DNA of 64,000 nt, taken from NCBI RefSeq assembly GCF_032854445.1, contig NC_088302.1, positions 40,800,191-40,864,190 of the forward strand, given 5' to 3'. The stretch is from Liolophura sinensis (lineage: Eukaryota; Mollusca; Polyplacophora; Chitonida; Chitonidae). The notes beneath the pieces were generated by a model. That model was not told the DNA's origin. It ran no database searches and saw only the letters and a list, made by a program, of their open reading frames with translations. The translations under genes were made by a program, and so were the position numbers. Shown here piece by piece: positions 23,194 to 63,951 of the stretch; position 1 is the stretch's first letter, and each line of letters begins with the position of its first letter.

Positions 23194-24158
23194 GCCCTCG
23201 AGGGATCAGGGCACATAACAGCTTTGCCAACTAACTTTGACTTCTATGACCTGAATGACGACAACTTCATCGAGATAGAGGAGTTCGCTAGCACTCTGGG
23301 CCAAGAAGTAGATGAACCCGACCTGGTCCGTGGGTTTAACGACACCGACATTAACGGTAATTATCGGCTACTCTTCCTAGAGACGACATGTGTTGTCCAT
23401 GTGTTGTCCATCAGTTTAAACATTTATGTATCCTTTACTTGCATGCGGCATAACACAAAGACGTGTTTTACATTGAGTATTACGATAAAATAAACGCCAG
23501 TAATCGGATAAATTAATGACATTAATGACTGTATTAACATACAGGGTTTTTCTCTTCTTTTTTTCACAGATGACGGCAAATTGTCCTATGAAGAGCTCAT
23601 GTGTGAAAGGTCCGGGTCCTTTTCGGTAATTATAGATTTCGTGTTCTGTATGTATGTCCGCTTTTCATATCTTATTGTTTACTTCTTTTGCATGTTTATA
23701 TCACTCATTGTGTGAGGAATATATAAGTCAACCGTAACTTTAGGAGCCTGTGTCTTTTTGCAAAGGTTTATTATTTATTCATTACAAAGGTTAATTATAC
23801 GCAGTTAATTTATTATTACAATTTAAATGCTCTCTTGTGACTAAATTGAAGTCCATATGTATTACTATTATAACTGAAATGAGGAAAGTAATGGTTTCAT
23901 AACCAGCAAATTAGTAAATTATTATTTACTATTTATTGTCATTCTCGTCGCCATCATCGTCATCATTGTCATCACTGTTGTTGTTGAAATTCGTATTATT
24001 ATTATTATCTTTTTCAGCGGTCCAGTTTGCCTGTTCGAAGGAGAGAGCCGGTGGCCCCAGTCTGTAACACTCGTGGTCACCAGATGTATCAGGTGTTCTC
24101 ACACATATCCCAGATGTCTCAATTGTTAAACAAACAAAAATCCTCAGAAAACAAGTAG
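23194..24158 (+). pseudogene. EF-hand tail exons without a cationic-peptide exon; probable relic
   Basis: Exons 23194-23356, 23570-23625 and 24018-24158 match the acidic tail exons of the two genes at 34.85 and 46.66 kb. EF-hand 1 is DLNDDNFIEIEE and EF-hand 2, built across the intron, is DINDDGKLSYEE. The middle exon is 56 nt instead of 57, so the last exon is read in a different frame. It then ends at 24158 rather than at the stop homologous to its paralogues (24064-24066), giving a 46-residue basic tail. No signal-peptide/cationic exon was found within several kilobases upstream. Either this is a decayed copy, or a gene with a new C-terminus and a distant first exon. The exon sequences are clear; the pseudogene status is inferred. 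Confidence 0.65.
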
Positions 24159-34490: not shown

Positions 34491-34850
34491 ACTACTAGGT
34501 CAGAGTACTTATCAAGTGACTTCACAAAGTCTTTGATTTCATTTGTTGTTTTTATTGACAACAGACTGAAAATAAAACTTAAACGTCTGTTACTTAACCC
34601 GACTATTTAAAAGCCGTTTTTATCAGTAGAATAATCCCCTGCGTGAAAAGTGAAGCACACCAAAAACTATTGTAAGATGATATCAGTTTTATTTCCTTTT
34701 TATACATGTCGAATATCTTAAAAATTTATGGGAAACCAATAATGATGGAAGAATAGTACAAATGTTTAACTGTTTGTTTTGGAAGAACTGAATTTAACTG
34801 TTGTGCCTGTGAGTATGTGTGAGGACCGATCCATCTTTTGACCACGAGTG

Positions 34851-35982
34851 TTACTGACTGGGTACTTCGACGTCCTCCTCTATGCGGGCAAACGGATCCG
34901 CTGAAGAAGATAATAATTATGTATAAACATATATCAAACAAAAGACGCTAATTAGGTGGCCAAGCACTATGGGCTGGAGCACGTAATGAAATCGGATATT
35001 TATTATTTTTCTTTCGTTTTCTTGAGAAATTTTTGAAAGCTTTAAGGCCTGTGACAGGAAAAGTTTTCATTGAATGTAGGAACAAGGTTACGAGGCAAAT
35101 TTTGGCTGTTTTTGATTAACTTTGGTCACGTGAAATGGCGGCCATCTTGGATTTTTATCAAAACCTTTAAAAATCTTCTTCTCATGAACCAACGAACGGA
35201 TTCCTGGACGTTCATCGAAAGCTTTGGAAGCTAGCCATTGGTCGAAGTTATGACGTCATATGACGTGTCTAATTTTGATCATGTTTTCATGTATTCTGGT
35301 GTATCTGGCAACGTTGATTCTGATTCTGCTTTAGGATTTTGCCTACCTTTGTAATTTTTGAGACATGGTCAAAAAACTCCTTTCAGTTCAGTAATTTCAA
35401 TGGCCTGTAACGCGAGAACCATGGTAGCTAGAAATGGAAAACTTACACCAAATTGTAGCTCTTTCGCAAATATGCCAAGGGATTTGAACTACGATCAATA
35501 GCTTTCTCGCTAGAAATGTTTAACTGACATCATCCTATTTCAGAAATAGAAATGTGTTAAGCATGTGCATTTAACATAGACTTTGGAGGTAACTGTGTAT
35601 TACTATACATGTGCTGCAAGCTTGCACGTAAGCCAGCCCTGTTCTCAATGAATCATGGGTATTTCTATACAATCCCGACGGCATTCCCCCACACCCCCAT
35701 GCTCTCAGGAATATAAGTCCGAAGCCATGGCCAAATACAGCAACTTCTATTCACTTGAGTTATTACGAGACAAAATATTGCAATTCTTATTACTCCAGAT
35801 TCAACCGAAATACCGTGGTTTCCAGTTTCTTTTCAGGTCTAGACCTTAAATGTCCTTAAGGATAAGACAGGTTTTAGGATGCCGCACAGAAAAGTAACTA
35901 GAAATCTGTAGGCCATGGCTTTGGACTGTTGTAAAGAAAACAACTCACAACACCGCTTATTCCTTGCAACTATTTGGACCAA

Positions 35983-36059
<77 letters not shown>

Positions 36060-37198
36060 TGGGACACTAGAGTGGGATGATTGTACGCCATGCGTCGAGC
36101 AACCTGAAATGTACATACTTATCCAGGTGCGGTGATCGTCAGCACAGGCAAGACGCTGTGGTAGCTTTTAGCACTAGACGCATTGTATATGATATCTGGT
36201 AGTGTGGGTATTCAAACCCAGTTAATTAATTTTCATTGTTGTCATGGTTTTTCTTCATGTTGTCTTTTTTGTAAATACCGTTACAATGGCTCATGCAGGT
36301 TGAATTTGTCGAATTTTCCTTTGTGTTGTATTTGGGCAGTTAAATCCAGCCATTTGTCCTTATATGTGTTGGCATTTGTTCGTAAACTGATGTTTGCCAA
36401 AGCTTAATTTTTCCGATCGTGGCAAATTAGTTTAGGGCATTACTTTAAGAGCGTTTTTTTTATTTCACATTCAATAGGGCCATGATGCTTGGCCACCGCT
36501 ATCGCTGTAAGGAACGTAACAGCTTTAATTGTATATACAATTTTAATAGCTTTAGAATTCACCTGAGCCACAAAGAAGTTTATCAACAGCAATGCTAACT
36601 TAACTGCAAATGGTTAATAAGGGCATTTTCTTTGATACTGTGCTTTAAATTAACAGCATCGTGACTACAAGGTCTTCAGCTAACAGCTGACTCATATTGT
36701 TAACAGTGAAATGTGTCATCATACAAAGCAGGTCAACCATGAAACATGAAAACAAAAACTGTATACAAGAAAAATGAAAAGCAAAACATCTATTTAACTA
36801 TAAAAGTGGGAGACTCGTGTCTGTGTGGGTGCGAGTATGTGTACATATATGTGTGTAATGTATACTTATGCACACTTATGTGTGCGTGAATGTGTGGGTG
36901 CACGGCTTTGGATTTCTTTCGCTGACGTCCATCCGATCTATTTAATACTTCCCGGTGTATTTCCTGAGAGTATGGTAAAATTGCGTATGCAAAGTAGGCA
37001 ATGGTGGCATCACAGATCTTTTCAACTTGTACTTCCCTCGACATGCTGGGTTTGCGCACAAAATCTACATGCCTCATATCACCAAAAGGACTTAATGACT
37101 GCGCCTTAGCTTTGGAGTGAAAACCATACCATGTAACAATATATGCTATGTACATCGTCCGGAAGATGTGAATTACGTCCAAAAGACATTGCACTAGT

Positions 37199-37273
<75 letters not shown>

Positions 37274-40004
37274 GATCCAGACTTACCCACAAAGAACACG
37301 GACGAGTCACCCATGAACTCTTCATATGACAGTTTCCCGTCATCTGTTAAAAAAAGAGTGCCAGTTAATAGTAATCATTACAATGATTCATCCACTGTAT
37401 AAACTTGGGGAAGTTAGTCACTGCAATGAAGTCGTGTTCATCCTCAAAGATGGAGAAAACATAAAAATGACATAAAGTTCAGGTGAAAGAGTTTGAAAAG
37501 TTATCCCTAAACGTGGTCTTCAATATTTTTTCCGATTTTTCCTAAAGGAGAAAAAGACAGTTGAAAATAATTTTTGTATGGTGGGTATTTGGGACCACCT
37601 TTTGGTATTTATAGTTTTTGTTTAATAATGTCATAAATGAGGATGTAACAAAGGTTTAATAAATATTTGTGCACTAGAATTTGTTCTTTTCAGCTAACAA
37701 ATGTATTAAACCTCAATTTGCATCATATTTATATTTTAATAGGTTCATAAATATTATCATAATGTAGGTTAAATGCATATGTTTGGATATAAACAACAAA
37801 TTTACATTCAAATAAATTTATGAGACAAGCATCAAATCCTTATTGAGAACATTATTATGCAACAACGATAAATACCAAAAGTTGGTCCCAAATACCCACC
37901 ATACAAAAATATTTTCAAATATCCTTTCTCTTGAAAAAAAATCAAAAAAAAATATTAAAGATCATATTTACAAATCAGTTTTGATGCTCTGTCATCTGAT
38001 TTTGGCATCATTTTTATGTTTTCTTCTCCTTTAAATGGAGTGAATACAAATTCCTTCCCTTTATTTTATTGGTAATTCACGCCATGCTCAAGAATATTTC
38101 ATTTATAAGTCGGCAGCGTTATCGTCCTTCCTTTCAATGCTTACTTTTAAATTAATGCCTAACACTTCTAATATTTTGTAATACATTCAAAGCAAATGTG
38201 CCACTGGAAACACCACGGGGTCTGATATTAAATGCTGGCACATGGACAAAGCATGTCGATTATATAGGAGTAAAGCAGCTGAAACTTACTGTTAATGTCG
38301 GTGTCGTTAAAGCCATGGACCAGGTCGGGTTCATCTACTTCTTGGCCCAAAGTACTAGCGAACTCTTCTATCTCAATGAAGTTGTCGTCATTCAAGTCAT
38401 AGAAGTCAAAGTTAGCAGGCAAAGCTGTGATGTGCCCTAACTCCTCGAGGGCCTGTAAGTGGTGGATAAAAGACAGTATAGCTTGATTAATCAAAATGTG
38501 CCCTAACTCCTCGAGGGCCTGTAAATGGAGGACAAAAGGCAGTATTGCTTGATTAATCAGAATGGGGCTAACTCCTCGAGGGCCTGTAAGTGGTTGACAA
38601 AAGACGATATTCCTTGATTAATCAGAACAGCCAGTTCATACGACATTATTTTTGTCCTTAAACTATTCTTCAATTCTTCAAAAATATCCCTTCCCTAAAG
38701 GCAAGCTTGTCGTAAAAGGCGACTAACCTAGAGCTCCCCGGTTTTGAACTGAATAGATCCCACACTTTATATTTAAATATAACTGTGTCCTCGATGGCAA
38801 ACAGGACATTTTGTGCGTTCATTAAGTCTTTGGTAAGATAACTTGAGGTATTGTTTTACTGGTTGAGGCATCCCTCGGTATACTGATTTCACAGCGTTGC
38901 TGGGCGATAATGTTTTTAAATATTTACAGACATTTTAAGCATTTATTAAGGATATTCTATAAAATATTGTTTTGGAACCATATTTGCCAAGGTTTTTGAT
39001 TTTTTAGCTCATTTTAAAGTTGTCTTGCTTTTTTTCCACTGATCTGGATGTTTTTATTTTCATGTTGAATGCCATAACTGGTTCTGACAAGATCTCACTA
39101 TGATGTGGCCGAAATTCCTAATGCGTGGATTTAAACCCTAACAATTCCTTCATTCATTGCTGCAATTCGGATGGAGCCATGCATGTTTTGGCTGGTAGTT
39201 TAGGATTGTATCACTTCATCTAATGTGTTATCGTTTTGCTTCTTGTCACGTTACAGTTTTTCATTGTTTTATTTTCGGAAGCTATATAAACATTTTAGGT
39301 TCACGTGACTACTGACTCATATATTTTGTCTTTCTTATTAGATCAAATACATTAAATCAAAGACAGCCATGCACGTGGCACAAGACTTGTGCTTGGAATT
39401 AATGAATAATAATGTACGAAGACCATTGCGGCAGCTTACATGATTGAAAAACGCAGGGATAGTGTGACGACGTCACGTGCCCAGAAACTGCCATACTGAT
39501 AATCATCAAGCTGATAGCTCGATTTCGTCAAAACAATATTCAAATATTCAACAAATTATCGTTTTTCTTAACAAAATTGGAGTGTATTAGAAGAGAAATA
39601 AGGGTTTGATTATCAAAGCAAAATATATTCAGAAAGACTTTTTAGTACCCGGTCGCAAACCTTAATTAATATCTTAATCATTCCATGCCCATACAGCCCG
39701 CAAAATATATATGAGAGTTTACTTTTTGAACAAAGTAGATCTAGCATTTATTGTACAGCAAATGACAATAAACTGGGTGTATGTTGAATCGCATTCTTAC
39801 CTGTCTCTTCTTCTTGCCGCATACTTTCTTACATGCGAATTTGCAGACATATTTTCTCCCGCGTCCCCTGTAAACCCATTTGCACCCTCTCTTGCAAACC
39901 TTTCTGCATATTTTCCTGACTAATCTACGTAGAAACCAGGCATTAGCCTCTTCCATCACCAACATGGTGACGAGAAAGACAACCAGTAGCGTCTTGGTCT
40001 TCAT
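34851..40004 (-). CDS. Secreted cationic CX3CX3C peptide fused to an acidic two-EF-hand tail (copy A)
   Basis: Coding exons are 40004-39801, 38452-38290, 37343-37287 and 34900-34851. The phases are 0, 1, 1 and the total is 157 residues plus stop. Residues 1-22 are a signal peptide (MKTKTLLVVFLVTMLV core, ending EANA). Residues 23-68 hold about 20 Arg/Lys, no acidic residue and six cysteines as CX3CX3C-x12-CX3CX3C (WFLRRLVRKICRKVCKRG start), closing GKKKRQ just before the intron. Residues 69-157 are strongly acidic with two EF-hand loops, DLNDDNFIEIEE (Asn instead of Gly at loop position 6) and DINNDGKLSYEE, and end RIEEDVEVPSQ. The likely product is a secreted defence peptide released by cleavage at KKKR; the EF-hand half would be a calcium-binding propeptide. 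That function is an inference. The doublet of CX3C helices recalls alpha-hairpinin folds. Neighbour copy B is 9 kb away. The exon A acceptor is triplicated. Confidence 0.8.
34956..36503. mobile_element. Non-autonomous DNA transposon present only in duplication unit A
   Basis: Ends read GGTGGCCAAGCACTATGGGC (34955 on) and, reverse-complemented at the right, GGTGGCCAAGCATCATGGCC. These terminal inverted repeats are about 1.55 kb apart. The collinear place in unit B (around 46745-46785) lacks the whole segment. It contains no transposase frame I can recognise and carries a long (TA)n run at 35984-36056. GCTA near both ends may be part of the target duplication. It lies in the last intron of peptide gene copy A. 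Confidence 0.65.
35984..36056. repeat. (TA)n microsatellite
   Basis: Uninterrupted AT/TA dinucleotides of about 73 bp inside the transposon at 34956-36503. Confidence 0.95.
37203..37270. repeat. (TA)n microsatellite beside a peptide-gene exon
   Basis: About 68 bp of TA repeats end 17 bp from the donor end of copy A coding exon 3 (37287). This run and the ~180 bp beside it are absent from the corresponding place in unit B. Confidence 0.95.
38068..38130 (-). mobile_element. SINE-A 3' fragment shared by both duplication units
   Basis: ATTGGTAATTCACGCCATGCTCAAG-type SINE end (minus) also found at 47300-47360, so it predates the segmental duplication. Confidence 0.6.
38437..38633 (-). repeat. 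Triplicated splice acceptor of peptide gene copy A
   Basis: Three 65-66-bp units each contain the intron end (TTTATCCACCACTTACAG-like) plus the first codons of the EF-hand exon (GCCCTCGAGGAGTTAG). Exon starts after AG would be 38452, 38518 and 38583. Copy B has a single acceptor at 47696, so the triplication happened after the gene duplication. Confidence 0.9.
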
Positions 40005-41160
40005 CTGAAACACACCAAATACATCAGGGTGACAAATAGTGACAGGAGCAAGGAGGACAAATCACACCTAATACATCGGAGTGACAAATAGTGACACTAA
40101 CAAGGCTACAAAACACACATCAAATACATCAGGGTGACAAAAACCGACACGAACAAAGCTACAAAACACACACCAAATACATCAGGGTGACAAATAGCGA
40201 CACGATCAAGGCTACAAAACACACACCAAATATATCTGGGTGAGACACAGTGATAGGAGCAAGGCTGCTAACACAATACCAAAATACATGCGAGTGACAA
40301 ATGGTAACAGGGGAAATGCAGACAAAAACACACCAAATACATAAGTAGTGGCAGAGCAAGGCGTGACCAAAACACATTAAATACATCTGTGTGGAAATTG
40401 ATAAATAAAGTAATGCGGGCAATAAATACACCAAGTACATCAGAGACGGAATTCCCAAATGGAGCAAGGTGGGCAATAAATACACCAAACACACCAGAGA
40501 CAGAATTCCTAAAAGGAGCAAGGTGGACAATAAAAACGCTAAACACACCAGAGACGGAATGCCTAAATGGAACAAGGTGGGCAATAAATACACCAACACA
40601 CCAGAGACGGAATGCCTAAATGGAACAAGGTGGGCAATAAAAACACTAAATACACCAGAGACGGAATTATTAAATGGAACAAGGTGGGCAATAAAAACAT
40701 TAAACACACCAGAGACAGAATCCCTAAATGGACCAACGTGGGCAATAAAAACACTAAACACACCAGAGACGGAATTCCTAAATGGAACAAGGTGGGCAAT
40801 AAAAACACTAAATACACCAGAGACGGAATCCCTAAATGGACCAAGGTGGGCAATAAAAACACTAAATACACCAGAGACGGAATCCCTAAATGGACCAAGG
40901 TGGGCAATAAAAACACTAAACACACCAGAGACGGAATCCCTAAATGGAGCAAGGTGGGCAATAAATACACCAAACACACCAGAAACGGAATGCCTAAATG
41001 GACCAAGGTGGGCAGTAAAAACACTAAATACACCAGAGACGGAATCCCTAAATGGAGCAAGGTGGGCAATAAATACACCAAACACACCAGAAACGGAATG
41101 CCTAAATGGAGCAAGGTGGGCAGTAAAAACACTAAATACAACGCTGTAGGAATTGCTAAA
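40005..41160 (-). repeat. Intron 1 minisatellites of copy A (about 50-bp and 54-bp units)
   Basis: From 40005 to about 40385, ~50-bp units carry AATACATCAGGGTGACAAAT and AGGAGGACAAAACACACC. From about 40389 to 41150, 54-bp units carry AAATGGAACAAGGTGGGCAA and CACCAGAGACGGAATCCC, about 13 copies. Both share ACACACCAAATACATC-like words, so the two arrays probably have a common origin. The 54-bp unit creates long frames on both strands that are not genes. Confidence 0.9.
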
Positions 41161-41262
41161 TGGAACAAATCTGAATCTCTATTGACCTCATAGAATATCC
41201 ACATCAGCACAAAATATCTGTACTACTGTAGCAAGGATTTACCCCTAACGCACAAAACTTAC

Positions 41263-41376
41263 CTCTGTGGGTTAGCTGGTCTTCACAACTGTGGAACTTG
41301 AATGATGTCTGCTGGGAGAGTGACGAAAGCCAAGAGCTCAAGCATCTTTTTATACCTTTTTTTATTTCCTGGACAG
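41263..41376 (-). promoter_or_regulatory. TATA promoter and 5'UTR exon, peptide gene copy A
   Basis: Minus strand: TCCAGGAAATAAA, then GGTATAAAAAGATGC (TATA at 41354-41351), then a noncoding exon ending at 41263 with donor GTAAGTTTTG. The next acceptor (GGTGTGTTTCAG) directly precedes the ATG at 40004. Transcription would start near 41325. Confidence 0.75.
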
Positions 41377-42699: not shown

Positions 42700-43665
42700 G
42701 GAAGGCAGACCACGATCACATGGCAAGTAGACCACGATCACATGGTAAGTAGCCCACGATCACATGGTAAGTAGACCACGATCACATGGTAAGTAGACCA
42801 CGATCACATGGCAAGTAGACCACGATTATATGGTAAGTAGACCACGATCACATGGTAAGTAGACCACGATTATATGGCAAGTAGACCACGATCACATGGT
42901 AAGTAGACCACGATTATATGGCAAGTAGACCACGATCACACGGCAAGTAGACCACGATCACATGGCAAGTAGACCACGATCACATGGTAAGTAGACCACG
43001 ATCACATGGCAAGTAGACCACGATCATATGGCAAGTAGACCACGATCACATGGCAAGAAGACCACGATCACATGGTAAGTAGACCACGATCACATGGTAA
43101 GTAGACCACGATTATATGGCAAGTAGACCACGATCATATGGCAAGTAGACCACGATCACATGGCAAGAAGACCACGATCACATGGTAAGCAGACCACGAT
43201 CACATGGTAAGTAGACCACGATTATATGGCAAGTAGACCACCATCATATGGCAAGTAGACCACGATCACATGGCAAGAAGACCACGATCACATGGTAAGC
43301 AGACCACGATCACATGGCAAGTAGACCACGATTATATGGCAAGTAGACCACGATCACATGGTAAGTAGACCACGATTATATGGCAAGTAGACCACGATCA
43401 CATGGTAAGTAGACCACGATCACATGGTAAGTAGACCACGATCACATGGCAAGTAGACCACGATCACATGGTAAGTAGACCACGATCAGATGGTAAGTAG
43501 ACCACGATCACATGGTAAGTAGACCACGATCACATGGCAAGTAGACCACGATCATATGGCAAGTAGACCACGATCACATGGCAAGAAGACCACGATCACA
43601 TGGCAAGTAGACCACGATCACATGGTAAACAGACCACAATTGCATGGCAAACACACCACGATCAC
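42700..43665 (+). repeat. 22-bp minisatellite with embedded splice-donor words
   Basis: About 43 near-identical units of GGTAAGTAGACCACGATCAC plus AT. Variation is mostly GGTAAG versus GGCAAG, and CACATGG versus TATATGG. Many units contain a perfect 5' splice-donor string GGTAAGTA on the plus strand. Confidence 0.95.
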
Positions 43666-45559
43666 ATAAGTCATCACTCGGATCAATTCAGTTAAATAAA
43701 ACTGTTATACGCGGATATACATGTACGGAAATATAAAAGATACAAATCAGAACCCCTTACAAAAATTATACATTACAATGAAACATTTTACTCGGAAATA
43801 CTCTAAAAATTTTACCCAAAATGATGAAAAACCACAAGAAAGAATGATCATCCCTTGATATGGGGGTTTACGCTCTGCAAACATTATGGTATTTTAATGA
43901 GATCATCAACCGTCGTTTAACTACAGAATTCCTGGGTATGACATTAAACCACAAGTAAATAAATAAATGGTGAGTGTGAAAATAGTTTTTCGGCGCACTG
44001 AGGCTATCGTAAGACTCTGTGCCACGATGAGGTATAGTCCAAAATATAGAAGCTAAAACGATGTTTGAGGTCACAGGGATTAAAAGCCACATACATCCTT
44101 AACTCCAGCTCAACATTTTCGTTATCTGAACAGACGAGTCGTTGGCTCAGAGAGCAAAAGGACAGCATGGAGCACTGCGACCAACAAGCCATAGGCTAAT
44201 GAGGTTGTGTGTTCGAATCCAACGCTAGGTGTTTTGTTGCAGCCGTAAGTCAGGAGGTTTGTCAGGTCGGCGGTTCACCCCGGTCATTCCTGGTTTATCC
44301 ACCCTCATATAGGCTCAAAAGTTCATCTTTTAACAGATATTCTGTAGTCTGAGATGTATTATGTTATTAAAACACGATATTCGGTCATGTTCAACACCAT
44401 ATTGTTAGTCTAATAGCATCTTAATGTTGAACTAATAAAATGCGCATGTAAGATTTAACAGAATAATCTGCTGCATTAACAGAATACATTCTAGCATCAC
44501 TCAGACAACAGGTTTTGTGTTAAATTTAACATATTATTTTTTCAGAGTATCCGGAGGTCTGGTACTAAAGGTTAAGTCTATGTAAAAGAATCTGAACAAA
44601 ATGAGCGAAGTCCACTTCATAGCAAACATATTGCTACTTCTGTCAGTAGTGTGTTAATGCATGCCAGAATTCGATATCACCACATGTTTTTGTCACTGTT
44701 TTCGCTGAAGAGAATGTAATTTTATTCAGCAATGTCGACCACAACAAAAGCTGATTTATCTGTAAACCTCTTAACACAAAACCCCATATAGTATTCGTAG
44801 ATCTAGTCACAGTTAAAGTTAACGTTGAATTTATCGCGATTAGTTCCTGATCGGATATATGTGTACATGCATTATGACAGACCGATGTAGCATCACATTC
44901 TACACTTCATGGCTGCCAATGAGAACAATTTCTTGTCGGCAGTAAGTTCCAACGTGAAGTCATAGCAATCTGCTATAAAGCGACGAAATGTATGTGTTTA
45001 TAGATTCAAACTTGATAACATATAGTCATTGCCTATACTATATTGTGTCAATGCACTGTGTTTATTGCTATTTTCTTTCACCCCATGCTCAACGCTGCCA
45101 GAACGGCTTATCTTTGGCTGGATTCAAATCTATACCCATGCAAAATATCACGTGGCATTCCAACATTACATGTGATAAGATAGCAAATGTCACATTGTCG
45201 TCGCTCCATGAAATTAAATTATTTTGACATATATGTACATTTGTTTTGCTTTTTTTCCCGGACTATAGTTGGTTTTAACATTGAACCCCGTATCCACCAT
45301 TTATGAAGCAGCCGCTCTACCCCCTATGTCACCGCAGATTGGACAAGACCTATGGTGCCCATGATGTCAGATGTACATGTATCGTGTCATACAGGTAAAC
45401 CAGCCACAGTTCTCCACCCTCTCTACAAACGGCGAAATGAACAGTTAGAATGCCATATTTCACCGGTTACGTGTAACCATTTGCTAGATATCACAGTGTC
45501 GTTGCTGCTCTTGTTTACCCTCTATGCTCTATGTCTTTAATAATACAGCTATGATTCCT
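43666..45559. other. Stretch between duplication units
   Basis: No exon was recognised. A tRNA-derived repeat head (GTGTTCGAATCCAACGCTAG) with the tail TCAGGAGGTTTGTCAGGTCG at about 44195-44300 recurs at 52085-52165. The segment 44980-45235 recurs at 53800-53990. Confidence 0.5.
44980..45235 (+). repeat. Dispersed duplicate, copy 1 (matches 53800-53990)
   Basis: CAAAATATCACGTGGCATTC and the flanking ~200 bp, to a TTGACATATAT end, match the segment at 53800-53990 at most positions. Confidence 0.7.
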
Positions 45560-46440: not shown

Positions 46441-46659
46441 TGAGAAAACACAGCAGTTAAAAGCCTTGTTTATCAACAGAATATTACACACAAACAAAAA
46501 CACACACGATAGGTTATTGTAAGATGAAATCAGTTTTATTTCGTTTTCATACATGTTGAATAAATGTTTAAAAAATTATACCTAATACCAAAAACTGGTA
46601 AAATAATAGTGGAAATGATTTTGGGGTATACATGAGGACTGATCCATCCGGTGACTATG

Positions 46660-49065
46660 TTACTGACTTAGGCCACTTGCTTCATACTCTGCGCTGGCAA
46701 ACGGATCGGCTGAAAACAAGAATAATATTAAAACATGTATAAAACAAAATACTATAGCTTGATAAAAAAAAAACTTAAAACCTTAAAATTCGCCTGAGCC
46801 ACACTGGAGTTTGTCAAGAGCAATGCTAAATTAAATGCAAATGGTTAATAATGACATTTTCTTAATAATACATGTAATAACATTGTGCTTTAATTTGCAG
46901 CGTCGTGACTACAAGGTCTTCAGCTAACAGCAGACTTTGTTAACAGTGAAATGTGTTCTCATACAAAGCAGGTGAACCATAAAACATGAAAACCAAAACC
47001 GTATACAAGAAAAATGAAAAGCAAAATAGAATATCGTAAAATTGCGTATACAAATTAGGCAACGATGACGTTGCTTGATCTTTCAACTTGTACATCCCTG
47101 GACATGCTGGGTTTGTACCAGATCCAGACTTACCAATAAAGAACACGGACGTGTCACCCATGAACTCTTCATATGACAATTTCCCATCATCTGTTAAAAA
47201 AGAGACAAGTGCCAGGTAATACTAATCATTACAATTATACATCTACTGTAAAGACGATAAATCCTTAAAATCGAGTGAATACAAATTCCTTCCCTCTATT
47301 TGATTGGTAATTTACGCTGTGCTCAAGAATATCTCATTTATACGTCGGCATCCTGCCGTTCAAAGCTTACTTAGAAATTAATACTTAACACTTCTAATAT
47401 TTTGTGATACATGCACAGCAAATATGCCACTGGAAACACCACGGGGTCTGATATTAAACACTGACACATTCGCACTGTGCTGACTGATGACAACGCATGT
47501 CCACTGATTAGAAGTAAAGCAGCTGAGACTCACTGTTAATGTCGGTGTCGTTAAACCCATGAACTAGGTCGGGTTCATCTACATTTTGGCCCAGAGTGCC
47601 AGCGAACTCTTCTATCTCGATGAAGTTGTCGTCATTCAGGTCATAGAAGTCAAAGTTAGCAGGCAAAGCTGTGATGTGCCCTGATTCCTCAAGGGCCTGT
47701 AAGTGGTGGACAAAAGACGATATTGCTTGATTAGTCAGAACAAGCTCAGTTCATTCTACCTTATTTCTGTTCTCCTATTCTTCAGTTCTTCCAAAATATC
47801 TCTTCTGTAAAGGCATGCTTGCCGTAAAAGGCGACTAACCTAGAGCTCCCCCGTTTTGAACTGAATAGGTGCCTCTCTTTATATTTAAATATAACTGTGT
47901 CCTCGATGGCAAACAGGACATTTTGTGTGTCCATTAAGTTTTTGGCAAGCTGACGTTAGGTATTGTTTTACTGGTTGAGGCATCCCTCGGTACTTTGGTT
48001 CCACAGCGTTGCTGGCGATACTGTAGTTGAATATTTACAGATATTTTAAGCATTTATTTAGGATATTTTATACAATATTGTTTTGAAACCATATTTACCA
48101 ACGCTTTTTATTTTTTAGTTCACCTTAAAGTTGTCTTCCTTTTTTTCCACTGATCTGGATGTTTTTATTTTCATGCTGAATGCCATAACTGGTTCTGACA
48201 AGATCTCACCATGATGTGGTCGAAATTCCTCCTGTGTGGATTTAAACCCTAACAATTCCTTCATTCATTGCTGCAATTCGGATGGAGCCATACATGTTTT
48301 GGCTGGTAGTTTAGGATTGTAACACTTTAGCTGGGGTGTTATCGTTTTGCTTCTTGTCACATTACAGTTTTTCATTGTTTTATTTTCGTAAACAGTATAA
48401 ACATTTTAGGTTTACGTGACCACAGTGTCATGTATTTGTCTATTTTATTAAATCTTCAAATGCAGCCACGCATGGCGTATGAGACTTAAACGTGGAAAAA
48501 ATGCATAATTTTGTCGAACGCCACTTCGGTAGTTTACATGACTGAAAAATGAAGACGATAGTGTGACGAAGTCACGTGCCCAGAAACTGCCACACCATAT
48601 ATTGGCAATCATCAGGGTGATAGCTTGATTTCGTTAATACAATAATTAAATATTCAACAAATTATCATTTTTCTTAACAAACTTGGAGGCTATTAGAAGA
48701 GTAGGAAGGGTTTGATTTTCGAACTAAATAAATATCTTAATTATTCCATGTCACATACAGTCCATAAATAATGGTTTACTTTTTGAACACACAAAGACGA
48801 TCTAGCATTTACTGTACAGCAAACAACAATAAAACGGATATACGTTGAATCGCATTCTTACCTGTCTCTTCTTCTTGCCGCATACTTTCTTACATGCGAA
48901 TTTGCAGACATATTTTCTCCCACGTCCCCTGTAAACCCATTTGCACCCTCTCTGGCAAACCTTTCTGCATATTTTCCTGACTAATCTACGTGCAAACCAG
49001 GCATTAGCCTCTTCCATCACCAACATGGTGACGAGAAAGACAACCAGTAGCGTCTTGGTCTTCAT
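46660..49065 (-). CDS. Secreted cationic CX3CX3C peptide fused to an acidic two-EF-hand tail (copy B)
   Basis: Coding exons are 49065-48862, 47696-47534, 47190-47134 and 46709-46660, with the same sizes (204, 163, 57, 50 nt) and phases as copy A, again 157 residues. The cationic exon differs from copy A at two residues of 68 (Leu25 to Ala, Lys38 to Gln). The EF-hand exon has a few changes (ALEESGH, AGTLGQNVDE). The last exon diverges most, with ASAEYEASGLSQ replacing ARIEEDVEVPSQ. EF loops DLNDDNFIEIEE and DINNDGKLSYEE are intact, as are all six cysteines and the KKKRQ site. Strong conservation of the cationic part beside a faster-changing tail suggests a functional peptide. It has its own TATA promoter. 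As for copy A, a defence role is inferred from the precursor layout. Confidence 0.8.
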
Positions 49066-50160
49066 CTGAAACACACCAAATACATCAGGGTGACAAATAG
49101 CGACAGGAACAAGGAGGACAAAACACACCTAATACATCAGGGTGACAAATAGCAACACGAACAAGACTATCAAACACACATCAAATACATCAGGTTGACG
49201 AATAGCGACACGATCAAGGCTACAAAACACACATTAAATACATAAAGGGTGACAAATAGTGACAGGAGCAAGGAGCTCAAAACACACCTAATGCATCAGG
49301 GTGACAAATAGCGACAGGAACAAGGAGGACAAAACACACCAAATACATCTGGGTGACAAATAGTGACAGGAGCAAGGAGCTCAAAACACACCTAATGCAT
49401 CAGGGTGACAAATAGCGACATGAACAAGGAGGACAAAACACACCAAATACATCTGGGTGACAAATAGCGACACGAACAAGGCTACCAAACACACACCAAA
49501 TACATCAGGGTGACAAAACGCACCTAATACATCATGACTGCAAGGCGTTGCCAAAGCACGCTAAATACATCAGTGTGGAAATTGATAAATTGAGAAATCT
49601 GGGTAATAAATACGCCAATCACCTCAGAATAGGAACGGATAAATACAGCAAGATGGGCAATAAATATATATAATATACACATCATGGCAGAAATTGCTAA
49701 ATGGAGCAAGGTGGGCAATAAAAATATACCAAACACATCATAGCAGAAATTGCTAAATGGAGCAAGGTGGACAATAAATATAACAACCACATCATGGTAG
49801 AAATTGATAAATTGGTCAAGGTGGGCAATGAACACCAAACATATCAGAGTAGGAATTGCTAACTTGAGAAAGATTGGTAATAAATACACCAAACATGTCA
49901 GAGTGGAAATTGCTAAAGGGAGTGAAGTGGGCAATAAATTTCTTTATTTGTTTGATTGGTGTTTTACGCCGTACCCAAGAATATTTCATTTATACGGCGA
50001 CAGCCAGCGTTATAGTGGGAGGAAACCGGGCAGAGCCCGGCAGAAACCCACGACCATCCGCAGGTTGCTGGCAGACCTTCCTACGTACGGCCGGGAAGAG
50101 CAATAAATACACCAAACACAATAGGAATTGCTAAATGGAGCAAGTCTGAATTTCTATAGA
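49066..50160 (-). repeat. Intron 1 minisatellites of copy B
   Basis: About nine ~50-bp units with ATCAGGGTGACAAATAGC and GGAGGACAAAACACACC (49066-49545) are followed by diverged 54-bp-type units (GAAATTGCTAAATGGAGCAA) to about 50160, interrupted by a SINE. The 54-bp array is shorter and less uniform than in copy A. Confidence 0.8.
49940..50099 (-). mobile_element. SINE-A inserted in copy B intron 1, 9-bp target duplication
   Basis: A minus-oriented 3' part of SINE-A (TTTGATTGGTGTTTTACGCC through CGTACGGCCGGGA) flanked by GCAATAAAT at 49931-49939 and 50100-50108. It is absent from unit A, so it inserted after the duplication. Confidence 0.85.
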
Positions 50161-50237
50161 GCTTATAGAATATCCACATCAGCATAAAATATGTGTACTA
50201 CTGTAGCAAGGATTTACCCCTAACACACAAAACTTAC

Positions 50238-50353
50238 CTCTATGGGTTAGCTGGTCTTCACAAAGGCTGGGAACCTGAATGGTGTCTGCTGTGAAAGTGA
50301 CAAAAACTCAAGAGTCCTGGCATCTTTTTATACCCTTTCTTTATTTCCTGGAC
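50238..50353 (-). promoter_or_regulatory. TATA promoter and 5'UTR exon, peptide gene copy B
   Basis: Minus strand: TCCAGGAAATAAA, then GGGTATAAAAAGATGCC (TATA at 50332-50329), then a noncoding exon ending at 50238 with donor GTAAGTTTTG. It closely matches copy A over the whole block. Confidence 0.75.
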
Positions 50354-62000: not shown

Positions 62001-63951
62001 AGGAGAGGAAACCACCATGACCTGGACTTGAACTCACCCCAATTGCCTTGATGAGAGGCTCCTAGGTCATTGTGCTGTACTAGCCCACTAACCACTGACA
62101 AGAGCTACACTATTGAGAAGAATTACTACAACTGTATATCTTATCAGCCAAAAACATGTTTGTACAACTAAATTCACATACATGTACACAGGTCATTATG
62201 GGCATAAATGGTTCCATGGCTACACTTAAGTAAATAAGGATACAGTCATGTACATAGAAACATGAACAGTTCATAAATGTATGTGAGAATAGGCTTTCCT
62301 TTTCGATAACGTTTAATAAATAGTGGAAACAGTACAGGTTACCTCAATGTATGCCTTTAAATCCACTAGATTGATAACCATGCCTGTTATTGGGTCAACC
62401 TATAAAAAGAGAACATCAACCACAATAAATGGCAGACATACAGGCATTCCAAATAAGTACAAAAGTGCTCGGGAGCAGGCTACTAGCACATCACTAGCAC
62501 AACTTTAGCACGCTTCTAGTATATAACTACCATTTCATCAGCTACTTGTACACTGAATAACAGATACAGCCCAAAACAGGATGAAGGTGCTCAGGGGCAA
62601 CCTACCAGCACAAGACTAGCTCAACTTAAGCATGCTTCTAATATATAACTACCATTTCATTAGTTACACAGAATAGCAGATGCAGCCCCAATCAGAATGA
62701 AGGTGCTTGGTGGCAGACTTCAGCATAGTCATGTATTCCATTTGGACATTTGTTTTCTCACACTCACTTGTAGAATGATGGACTGTGTTATGGGTGGAAG
62801 ACATCAGAGTGCCCAGAGGGAGCCACCAGAAAGACCAGAGGAACACACCAGAGAGCCCAGAGGGAGCCACCAGACAGCCCAGAGGGAGCCACCAGAGTGC
62901 CCAGAGGGAGCCACCAGTGTCCTGAGGGAGCGACCAGAGTGCCCAGAGGGAGCGACCAGAGTGCCCTGAGGGAGCCACCAGAGTGCCCAGAGGGAGCCAC
63001 CAGAGTGTCCTGAGGAGCCACCAGAGTGCCCAAAGGGAGCCACCAGAGTGTCCTGAGGGATCCACCAGAGTGTCCAGCGGAAAACAACATAGTGCCCAGA
63101 GGAAGACAACAGTGCCCAGATGGAGTCATCAGTGCCCAGAGAAGGCAACAGAGTGCCTAGAGGGAGCCACCAGAGAGCCCAGAGAAGGCAACAGAGTGCC
63201 TAGAGGGAGCCACCAGAGAGCCCAGAGGAAGACACCAGAGTGCCCAGTTGGAACACACCAGAGAGCCCGGAGGAAGACACCAAAGTGCTCAGAGGGAGCC
63301 ACCAGAGACCCCACAGGAAGACACCAGAGTGCCCAGAGGGAACCACCAGTGCCCAGAGGGAGCCACCAGAAAGACCAGCGGAACACACCAGACAGCCCAG
63401 AGGGAGCCACCAGAGTGTCCAGCGGAACACAACATAGTGCCCAGAGGAAGACAACATAGTGCCCAAAGGAAGACAACATAGTGCCCAGAGGAAGACAACA
63501 GTGCCCAGACGGAGTCATCAGTGCCCAGAGAAGGCAACAGAGTGCCTAGAGGGAGCCACCAGAGATCCCAGAGGAACACACCAGTGCCCAAAGGGAGCAA
63601 TCAGAGTACCCAGAGGGAGCCACCTGAGAGCCCAGAGGAACACACCAGAGTGCCCAGAGGAACACACCAGAGTGCCAAGAGGAAGACACCTGATTTTGGT
63701 AAGAAACTAACAACCAGGTGAAGCCAAGACAAATCGCTGTCATTTTCGCCTGAAAGATACAGCTGAAGAAGACAGAGTTGGGTTTGAGTCTGTAAGCACA
63801 TTGGTCAGGGGCCGATTGCCGCTGTAGCCAGAACAAATCTTTTATCTGAGCCAGTGAAACACAATAAATACTTTTGGAAATAGCACTCCATTTGTTTCCC
63901 TGTACACACTTGTTATATACTCACTGGTCCCCTGACAATTACTTCCACTGA
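59004..63951 (-). CDS. PTS: PTS, 6-pyruvoyl-tetrahydropterin synthase, 3' two-thirds
   Basis: Exons seen: 63951-63929 (23 nt, VEVIVRGP), 62399-62343 (VDPITGMVINLVDLKAYIE), 61838-61768 (KAIMSVLDHKNLDKDVPYFK then DVVS) and 59139-59004 (TTENLAVFIWHQLTMLLP, then GLLYEVKIHETDKNVVFYRG, DVTSD and stop). Phases join without gaps. The enzyme converts dihydroneopterin triphosphate to 6-pyruvoyl-tetrahydropterin, the second step of tetrahydrobiopterin synthesis, in the cytosol. The catalytic Asp-His pair is present in LDHKNLD, and the pterin-anchoring Glu in HETDKN. The zinc-binding histidines and catalytic cysteine belong to the first exons, beyond the right edge. The 23-nt exon matches the size of the small exon 3 of vertebrate PTS. 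The C-terminus is about five residues longer than in mammals. Confidence 0.95.
60376..60535 (-). mobile_element. SINE-A, 3' part, in PTS last intron
   Basis: TATTTATCTGAGGGGTGTTT, ACTCAAGAATATTCCACTTA, GGTGGGAGGAAACCACGCAG and CCATCCACAGGTTGCTGACA in minus orientation, the same strand as PTS. Confidence 0.8.
60845..61385 (+). repeat. 39-bp minisatellite built from an internal SINE-A segment
   Basis: About eleven units of AATGCTGGCCACAGGCTCTG plus CCAGGTTTCCTCCCACCAT. The same words in the same order with the same spacing form the centre of SINE-A (GGCTCTGCCCGGTTTCCTCC, ACCATAATGCTGGCC). A SINE-A-type end (GGCGTAAAACACTAATCAAA) lies at 60850-60890 and a GTGAAATATTAAG remnant follows the array. 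The array lies in the last intron of PTS. Confidence 0.9.
61474..61727 (-). mobile_element. Full-length SINE-A with 13-bp target duplication, in PTS intron
   Basis: Complete minus copy from TTTATTTATTTATTTGACTG to the head (CTAACCAACTGAGCCACG), flanked by TACTGGCATTGTA at 61461-61473 and 61728-61740. It ends about 40 bp from a PTS exon (61768). Confidence 0.9.
61866..62105 (-). mobile_element. SINE-A, degenerate, in PTS intron
   Basis: Minus copy with TTTATGTCATACTCAAAAAT, GGGAGCCAGCATCATGGTGG, CTCCCGACCATCTACAGG and a decayed tRNA-like end. Confidence 0.75.
62810..63690 (+). repeat. Large ~22-bp purine-rich minisatellite in PTS intron
   Basis: About forty units of AGAGGGAGCCACCAGAGTGC plus CC, with variants GAACACACCAGA and GAAGACAACA. 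There is also a longer higher-order repeat: the block with AGTCATCAGTGCCCAGAGAA at 63123-63150 recurs at 63512-63540. It has no stop in several frames, which explains the overlapping long frames on both strands. Confidence 0.95.

What the first reader, a model, noticed from the sequence alone, without database searches (positions are those of the whole stretch)
34851..41376. Cationic CX3CX3C-x12-CX3CX3C peptide encoded in one precursor with an acidic two-EF-hand tail
Seen: an exon with signal peptide and a 46-residue core (about 20 Arg/Lys, no Asp/Glu, six cysteines in two CX3CX3C blocks) ends in KKKRQ at a GTAAGA donor. The following minus-strand exons, in matching phases 0/1/1, encode a very acidic segment with two EF-hand loops and a stop. 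Known: many invertebrate antimicrobial peptides (mytilins, clavanins, styelins) have an acidic C-terminal propeptide. I know of none where that propeptide is a canonical EF-hand pair. Inference: the EF-hand half may neutralise the cationic peptide during secretion and release it depending on calcium and KKKR cleavage. Extracellular or granule calcium could thus act as a switch. This would be a new precursor architecture.
Basis: partly seen in the sequence, partly recalled or inferred. Interest (0 to 1): 0.92.

Follow-up and report, generated by a model that had tools for sequence, protein, structure and literature searches.

The report
Chiton defence-peptide precursors with EF-hand tails
A chiton genome holds a whole family of genes, each encoding a secreted, positively charged, cysteine-rich peptide (probably antimicrobial) joined to an acidic calcium-binding tail, a precursor layout already known from one mussel peptide family.

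Summary
An NCBI protein model of the chiton Liolophura sinensis, on a contig of the same length, contains the joined sequence.

It is not a lone gene. The window holds a second complete copy and an EF-only remnant. Genome-wide, 27 of 30 cationic exons have an EF-hand exon 0.4-2.8 kb downstream on the same strand, about 0.003 expected by chance. Fifteen of 15 modelled genes keep the six-Cys pattern, basic site, phase-0 junction and calcium-ligand residues in both loops. The mature part tends to evolve faster than the tail.

The claim that no such architecture is known is wrong: mussel mytimycins have an EF-hand C-terminal extension. The chiton family differs in cysteine scaffold and animal class. 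I read it as an antimicrobial precursor whose EF-hand pair neutralises or chaperones the peptide; a calcium-release switch is unlikely. New variant of a known kind.

The parts
41346..41354 (-). Copy A: TATA box (TATAAAAAG); promoter and exon-1 region 87% identical to copy B
   Evidence: read; conservation
41263..41320 (-). Copy A: inferred non-coding exon 1; end set by GTAAGT donor at 41262, start approximate
   Evidence: blastn match to copy B at 50365-50175; transcription start not tested
39801..40004 (-). Copy A exon 2: signal peptide (22 aa, by eye) + cationic CX3CX3C-x12-CX3CX3C core + GKKKRQ; phase-0 donor GTAAGA
38290..38452 (-). Copy A exon 3: EF-hand 1 (DLNDDNFIEIEE) and start of EF-hand 2; phase 0 in, phase 1 out
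37287..37343 (-). Copy A exon 4: rest of EF-hand 2 (loop DINNDGKLSYEE)
34851..34900 (-). Copy A exon 5: acidic C-terminus ADPFARIEEDVEVPSQ and stop; AATAAA at 34693
50324..50332 (-). Copy B: TATA box; exon-1 donor at 50237
48862..49065 (-). Copy B exon 2: same cationic exon, 2 of 68 residues differ
47534..47696 (-). Copy B exon 3 (EF-hand 1)
47134..47190 (-). Copy B exon 4 (EF-hand 2)
46660..46709 (-). Copy B exon 5 and stop; AATAAA at 46540
23194..23356 (+). Copy C: EF-hand exon 3 homologue, 93% aa identity, no cationic exon found in the window
23570..23625 (+). Copy C: exon 4 homologue, 56 nt against 57 in A and B, so the last exon is out of frame
24018..24067 (+). Copy C: exon 5 homologue

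Best explanation
This is one member of a multigene family (30 cationic-exon places found, 27 with an EF exon) of secreted host-defence peptide precursors in the chiton Liolophura sinensis. Shown by sequence: a signal-peptide-like start; a basic peptide with twin CX3CX3C motifs; a basic (K/R)-rich cleavage site at a phase-0 exon junction; then an acidic EF-hand pair whose ligand positions are kept. Inferred: a furin-like protease cuts after the basic site; where a Gly follows Cys6, trimming plus amidation leaves a Cys-amide end; the core folds as an alpha-helical hairpin cross-linked by three nested disulfides (1-6, 2-5, 3-4); it kills microbes by acting on membranes. The calcium-loaded EF-hand pair acts as an intramolecular chaperone and inhibitor: it offsets the charge and probably clamps the basic segment much as calmodulin lobes clamp melittin-like helices (recalled), until cleavage or acid pH in granules or phagosomes releases the peptide. 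Calcium is then mainly structural, not the trigger.
For: Architecture and charges; EF-hand pair above Pfam cut-off; NCBI protein model spanning the coding exons; 27 of 30 pairings in order and strand against 0.003 expected; a search with the EF tail alone led to a diverged cationic subfamily on contig C1 that the first cationic-exon search had not listed; invariant Cys, basic site and phase in 15 of 15 modelled genes (14 distinct proteins), and D1, D/N/S3, D/N5, E/S/T9, E12 in both loops; tail dN below dS in 11 of 11 close pairs that differ, against mature dN above dS in 5 of 9 pairs and 0.5-0.8 of dS in the other 4 (no significance test); tail identity above non-Cys mature identity in 81 of 91 pairs; core model is a helical hairpin, pLDDT 75.7; the C3-C4 loop varies (5, 7, 12, 13 residues) while the CX3CX3C arms do not, as a nested ladder allows; mature and tail charges anticorrelate, r = -0.59, P = 0.026, n = 14 distinct but related genes; mytimycin gives a mussel precedent of an isolated antifungal peptide with this layout.
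Against: No expression, peptide, disulfide or activity data. The charge correlation is not independent across relatives; over five subgroups P = 0.20. With Cys and cleavage site counted, mature and tail are equally conserved (mean identity 0.52 and 0.53), and the signal peptide is not more conserved (0.48). Helical amphipathicity of the N-terminal basic segment reaches P<0.05 in only 4 of 11 segments tried and two have beta-like periodicity; in copy A helix 1 gives P = 0.03 and helix 2 P = 0.38. Exon 4 of the 13 paralogues was picked by a scan that rewards likeness to copy A's second loop, so loop-2 ligand retention is partly selected for; exon 5 was not found in them. The full-precursor model is unusable (pLDDT 34.6), so no EF-hand/peptide contact is shown. 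Five of the 15 modelled genes (four distinct proteins) carry only +2 to +5 before the linker. The three C1 genes read lack the amidation Gly. L051 has Lys at loop-1 position 9.
Confidence: 0.62

Rival explanations
1. Same precursor, but the EF-hand tail is a sorting or packing module: it aggregates with calcium at trans-Golgi or granule pH and carries the peptide into storage granules, rather than inhibiting it.
For: Ligand positions of both loops are kept in 15 of 15 modelled genes; secreted EF-hand proteins with Ca-driven sorting (Cab45 type) are known (recalled).
Against: Does not by itself explain the matched opposite charges or their weak covariation.
Confidence: 0.2
2. The cleaved tail is a second effector, for example a metal-withholding protein like the S100 calprotectins, so the gene makes two defence products.
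For: The tail is under purifying selection and is kept in 27 of 30 places.
Against: No transition-metal site was looked for; the one invariant His in exon 3 is not enough to suggest one; no data.
Confidence: 0.07
3. Not defence but metal handling or mineralisation (chiton teeth are mineralised with iron): a cationic Cys-rich hairpin with an acidic Ca-binding partner.
Confidence: 0.06
4. The cationic exon and the EF-hand exons are separate genes that lie side by side by chance.
For: No transcript was examined; copy C has EF exons without a cationic exon in the window.
Against: 27 of 30 pairings on three contigs, one strand, one order, compatible phases in 15 of 15 models; NCBI model spans both; copy A's exon 3 has no Met and no signal peptide of its own.
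Confidence: 0.02

Closest known systems
Mytimycin (MytM), antifungal peptide of Mytilida mussels
   Same: Signal peptide, usually cationic Cys-rich mature peptide, dibasic site, anionic C-terminal extension with EF-hand; non-coding exon 1; expanded, variable gene set including pseudogenes (PMC8004829 passages and sections; PMC3210125 passages)
   Different: Mytimycin has 10-14 Cys on a 10-Cys backbone, 3 exons, and is described as restricted to the bivalve order Mytilida. The chiton family has 6 Cys in twin CX3CX3C, 5 exons in copies A and B, and lies in Polyplacophora. The number of EF loops in mytimycin is not clear from the texts seen ('an EF hand-motif'; 'EF hands'). Homology of the two EF tails could not be tested.
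Turgencins, ascidian AMPs
   Same: Six Cys; nested 1-6/2-5/3-4 connectivity shown for turgencin and predicted here; amidated C-terminus shown there, Gly-basic signal here (PMC7024374, passages)
   Different: Different Cys spacing, no sequence relation known, precursor gene unknown in that paper; connectivity here is inferred.
Alpha-hairpinins (Luffin P1, vicilin-buried peptides such as the Jug r 2 fragment)
   Different: Plant proteins; two disulfides (recalled) against three Cys pairs here; no EF-hand tail.
Myticin (mussel AMP)
   Same: The most recurrent Pfam family near the cationic exon: PF10690, 6 of 14 members, best E 0.017; LEAP-2 comes next with 3 of 14, best E 0.034
   Different: Below the curated cut-off (10.8 and 12.6 bits against 28.5 for copies A and B); different Cys scaffold and no EF-hand (recalled).

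Membership tests
Mytimycin | Signal peptide + cationic Cys-rich peptide + basic cleavage site + acidic C-terminal EF-hand extension | tested here: met
   definition
Mytimycin | 10 invariant cysteines in the mature peptide | tested here: not met
   six Cys in 15 of 15 modelled genes; definition
Mytimycin | EF-hand domain of common descent with mytimycin's | not testable with these tools
   no mytimycin precursor sequence obtained
Mytimycin | Antifungal activity | not testable with these tools
   no assay
EF-hand pair domain (PF13499) | Score above curated cut-off and canonical ligand positions in both loops | tested here: met
   35.1 bits against 30 for the copy A precursor; ligands in both loops of 15 of 15 models, loop 2 of the paralogues being picked by an EF-like scan
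Alpha-hairpinin-like helical hairpin | Two antiparallel helices held by CX3C pairs | tested here: inconclusive
Turgencin-type AMP | Cys1-6, 2-5, 3-4 disulfides and C-terminal amide | not testable with these tools
   needs purified peptide; Gly after Cys6 in 14 of 14 distinct aligned sequences, not in the 3 C1 sequences read
Myticin (PF10690) | Pfam curated cut-off | tested here: not met
   10.8 and 12.6 bits against 28.5 for copies A and B; best E 0.017 among 14 members

The most novel reading that the evidence does not exclude
EF-hand pairs were recruited, or kept from an early mollusc ancestor, as dedicated intramolecular clamps for unrelated cationic peptides: a calmodulin-like pro-domain that holds its own antimicrobial peptide inert in the Ca-rich secretory path and lets go on cleavage or acidification. 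The same device would serve mussel mytimycins and a large chiton family with a different cysteine fold, which would explain the unexplained mytimycin EF-hand.
Probability: 0.35. Interest if true: 0.8.

Novelty: new variant of a known kind. Interest (0 to 1): 0.6.

Why it matters
The purpose of the EF-hand in mytimycin precursors is stated to be unknown (PMC8004829), and mytimycins are said to be confined to one bivalve order. A large chiton family with the same layout but another peptide scaffold gives a second case to compare: what is kept across both (acidic EF-hand after a basic site) is likely to be the functional part. With many natural variants, the pro-domain question (neutraliser, chaperone, sorter or second effector) can be tested directly. 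It may also be the first such family described from a chiton: the searches with 'chiton' (5 papers, 0 papers) gave no title or abstract start that reports a chiton antimicrobial peptide, but the five listed papers were not opened and the library lacks most subscription journals.

Tried and rejected
Homology searches in 5.8 billion proteins found only the chiton protein itself, with the full precursor, its EF tail and a mytimycin/chiton chimera. The last also failed to find any mytimycin, so it says nothing about relatedness. The Raphitoma EF-hand protein listed among venom candidates (passages) gave no sign of this layout and was dropped. The full-precursor structure prediction failed. Solved-structure sequence searches of the core gave nothing significant. 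NF-kB sites in 1 kb upstream of the TATA boxes: none for copy A, one loose site for copy B, no conclusion. Opposite-strand 'cationic' hits near 6.1 kb in L011-L013 lie in short frames closed by stops, rejected. Exon 5 and promoter of the 13 paralogues were not found convincingly by a simple scan, so those models stop after exon 4. The NCBIfam XopAW hit (E 0.047, 13.5 bits against a cut-off of 120) is taken as a generic EF-hand match. EF-like places without a cationic exon found: copy C, L042 and L050 (2 kb more upstream DNA read for the latter two) and L047, which reads like an ordinary calmodulin-type protein. Six more weak EF hits were not inspected in sequence. Dropped before the count: two exon-4 rows, one C5 row with an internal stop, and one C1 row merged with its neighbour. 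L013, whose protein is identical to L012's, was left out of alignments A3 and A4. The place lists were copied by hand from the call outputs. L016 exon 3 was started at two different phase-0 acceptors, a difference of four uncharged residues.

Full report
Observation. A first joining was off by one base at exon 4 and was corrected. The core (residues 23-68) carries 20 Lys/Arg and no acid; the tail carries 24 acids and two EF-hand loops, DLNDDNFIEIEE and DINNDGKLSYEE. Pfam scores an EF-hand pair above its cut-off. A TATA box and a probable non-coding first exon lie upstream, and both resemble those of a second copy. The signal peptide was judged by eye; no predictor was run.

Organism. The only relative in a 5.8-billion-protein search is an NCBI protein named 'EF-hand calcium-binding domain-containing protein 1-like [Liolophura sinensis]', which contains the whole precursor plus MYL at its start. 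Its contig length, 58,388,612, equals that of contig C8 of the window's own assembly, so it is most likely a model on the same assembly and not independent data. The published genome of this chiton was first labelled L. japonica and later corrected to L. sinensis (PMC11068029, passages; PMC12441733, whole text). Whether the NCBI model rests on RNA reads is not shown by any search. The MYL start is probably an annotation effect, since the 15 modelled genes all have a Met at the inner position (inference).

Copies in the window. Copy B (50.3-46.7 kb, minus strand) has the same exons, phases and stop. Introns of A and B are 88-90% identical where they align, EF exon 3 has dN 0.032 and dS 0.341, and exon 2 differs at only 4 of 204 bases. 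Copy C (23.2-24.1 kb, plus strand) keeps EF exons only; its exon 4 is one base short, and a scan for signal-peptide-like frames ending at a phase-0 donor found no third cationic exon in the window. It is probably a remnant.

Genome-wide test. With the cationic exon of copy A as query the own genome gave 15 matches at E<=0.001. I fetched 10 kb around each of the 13 outside the window. Thirteen of 13 have an EF-hand exon downstream on the same strand and a donor one codon after the final Arg of the basic site. In 13 of 13 a scan for EF-loop-like exons found a clear best candidate completing the second loop. The converse search with the EF tail alone gave 39 matches at E<=1. Of the 28 exon-3 places with loci, 23 had a cationic exon within about 1.5 kb (L040 with a degenerate end), one more had it at 2.8 kb, and four had none. 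Three of the 23 belonged to a diverged subfamily on contig C1 that the first search had not listed. Three further cationic-exon queries extended the list. In total 30 cationic places and 37 EF exon-3 places were compared: 27 cationic exons have an EF exon downstream within 3.5 kb on the same strand, at 375 to 2798 bases, with 0.003 pairs expected by chance. The three unpaired are partial or stop-bearing copies on C1. Of the 37 EF places, four inspected ones have no cationic exon found (copy C, L042, L047, L050) and six were not inspected in sequence. The tool scores only the best candidates, so its counts are lower bounds.

Family features. In 14 distinct exon-2 sequences the invariant residues are the six Cys in C-X3-C-X3-C ... 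C-X3-C-X3-C, the Gly after Cys6, the Lys-Arg of the cleavage site, three residues of the signal peptide and one Arg. The loop between Cys3 and Cys4 has 5, 7, 12 or 13 residues. Fifteen of 15 modelled genes (14 distinct proteins) keep D1, D/N/S3, D/N5, E/S/T9 and E12 in both EF loops; for loop 2 of the paralogues the exon scan favoured this. Among ten further loop-1 sequences listed, one (L051) has Lys at position 9. The three C1 sequences read have Asn or Ser after Cys6 instead of Gly. Among 91 pairs, tail identity exceeds non-Cys mature identity in 81; with Cys and cleavage site counted the means are equal (0.53 and 0.52), and the signal peptide (0.48) is not more conserved. In close pairs mature dN exceeds dS in 5 of 9 and is 0.5-0.8 of dS in the other 4, while tail dN is below dS in 11 of 11 pairs that differ (no significance test). 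Together these fit a host-defence peptide gene family, although activity is untested.

Known relatives. Mytimycin precursors consist of a 23-aa signal peptide, a 54-aa mature peptide with 12 Cys and a 75-aa C-terminal extension with an EF-hand (PMC8004829); the gene has 3 exons and 2 introns (PMC3210125, passages). The authors state that the role of the EF-hand is unknown, that it lies in an anionic extension after a dibasic site, and that the family seems restricted to Mytilida. I could not obtain a mytimycin precursor sequence, so common origin of the EF tails stays open.

Mechanism. Most likely the precursor is an antimicrobial peptide gene whose EF-hand pair is a pro-domain. Opposite charges of similar size in copy A, a basic cleavage site between the halves, and retention of calcium ligands in the modelled members fit a neutralising clamp. 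The correlation of charges across genes is suggestive only (r = -0.59, P = 0.026, n = 14 related genes; P = 0.20 over five subgroups). Helical amphipathicity of the basic N-terminal segment reaches P<0.05 in 4 of 11 segments. A calcium-drop switch is unlikely because calcium is high along the whole secretory route and in the sea (general knowledge); cleavage or acid pH is more plausible. Sorting into granules is the main rival.

Verdict. The layout is a new variant of the mytimycin type in another mollusc class, with another cysteine scaffold. Interest 0.6.

Noticed in passing
38430-38627 (minus-strand copy A): A 66-bp unit repeated three times carries the exon-3 acceptor each time; use of the middle acceptor (38518) would add 22 residues in frame, use of the outer one meets a stop.
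   Followed up: partly
39801-40004 vs 48862-49065: Exon 2 of copies A and B differs at 4 of 204 bases, one of them silent, while introns differ by 10-12%: a short gene-conversion tract or nucleotide-level constraint.
   Followed up: partly
40010-41140 and 49069-49939: First introns of both copies are largely filled with 52-54-bp tandem repeats.
   Followed up: no
L020 and L021, near 3.5-4.2 kb of the reoriented loci: Several 48-nt candidate mini-exons (NTNSKCIEAFS, then V or L, then TDTN) lie between EF exons 3 and 4, perhaps extra EF-like exons.
   Followed up: no
G000:C1:16137721-16137944, 16099792, 16134783: Cationic exons that match only in part or hold a stop and have no EF exon downstream; probable pseudogenes.
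   Followed up: partly
42707-43667 and 62805-63690: Long 22-bp tandem repeat arrays (43.7 and 41 copies).
   Followed up: no
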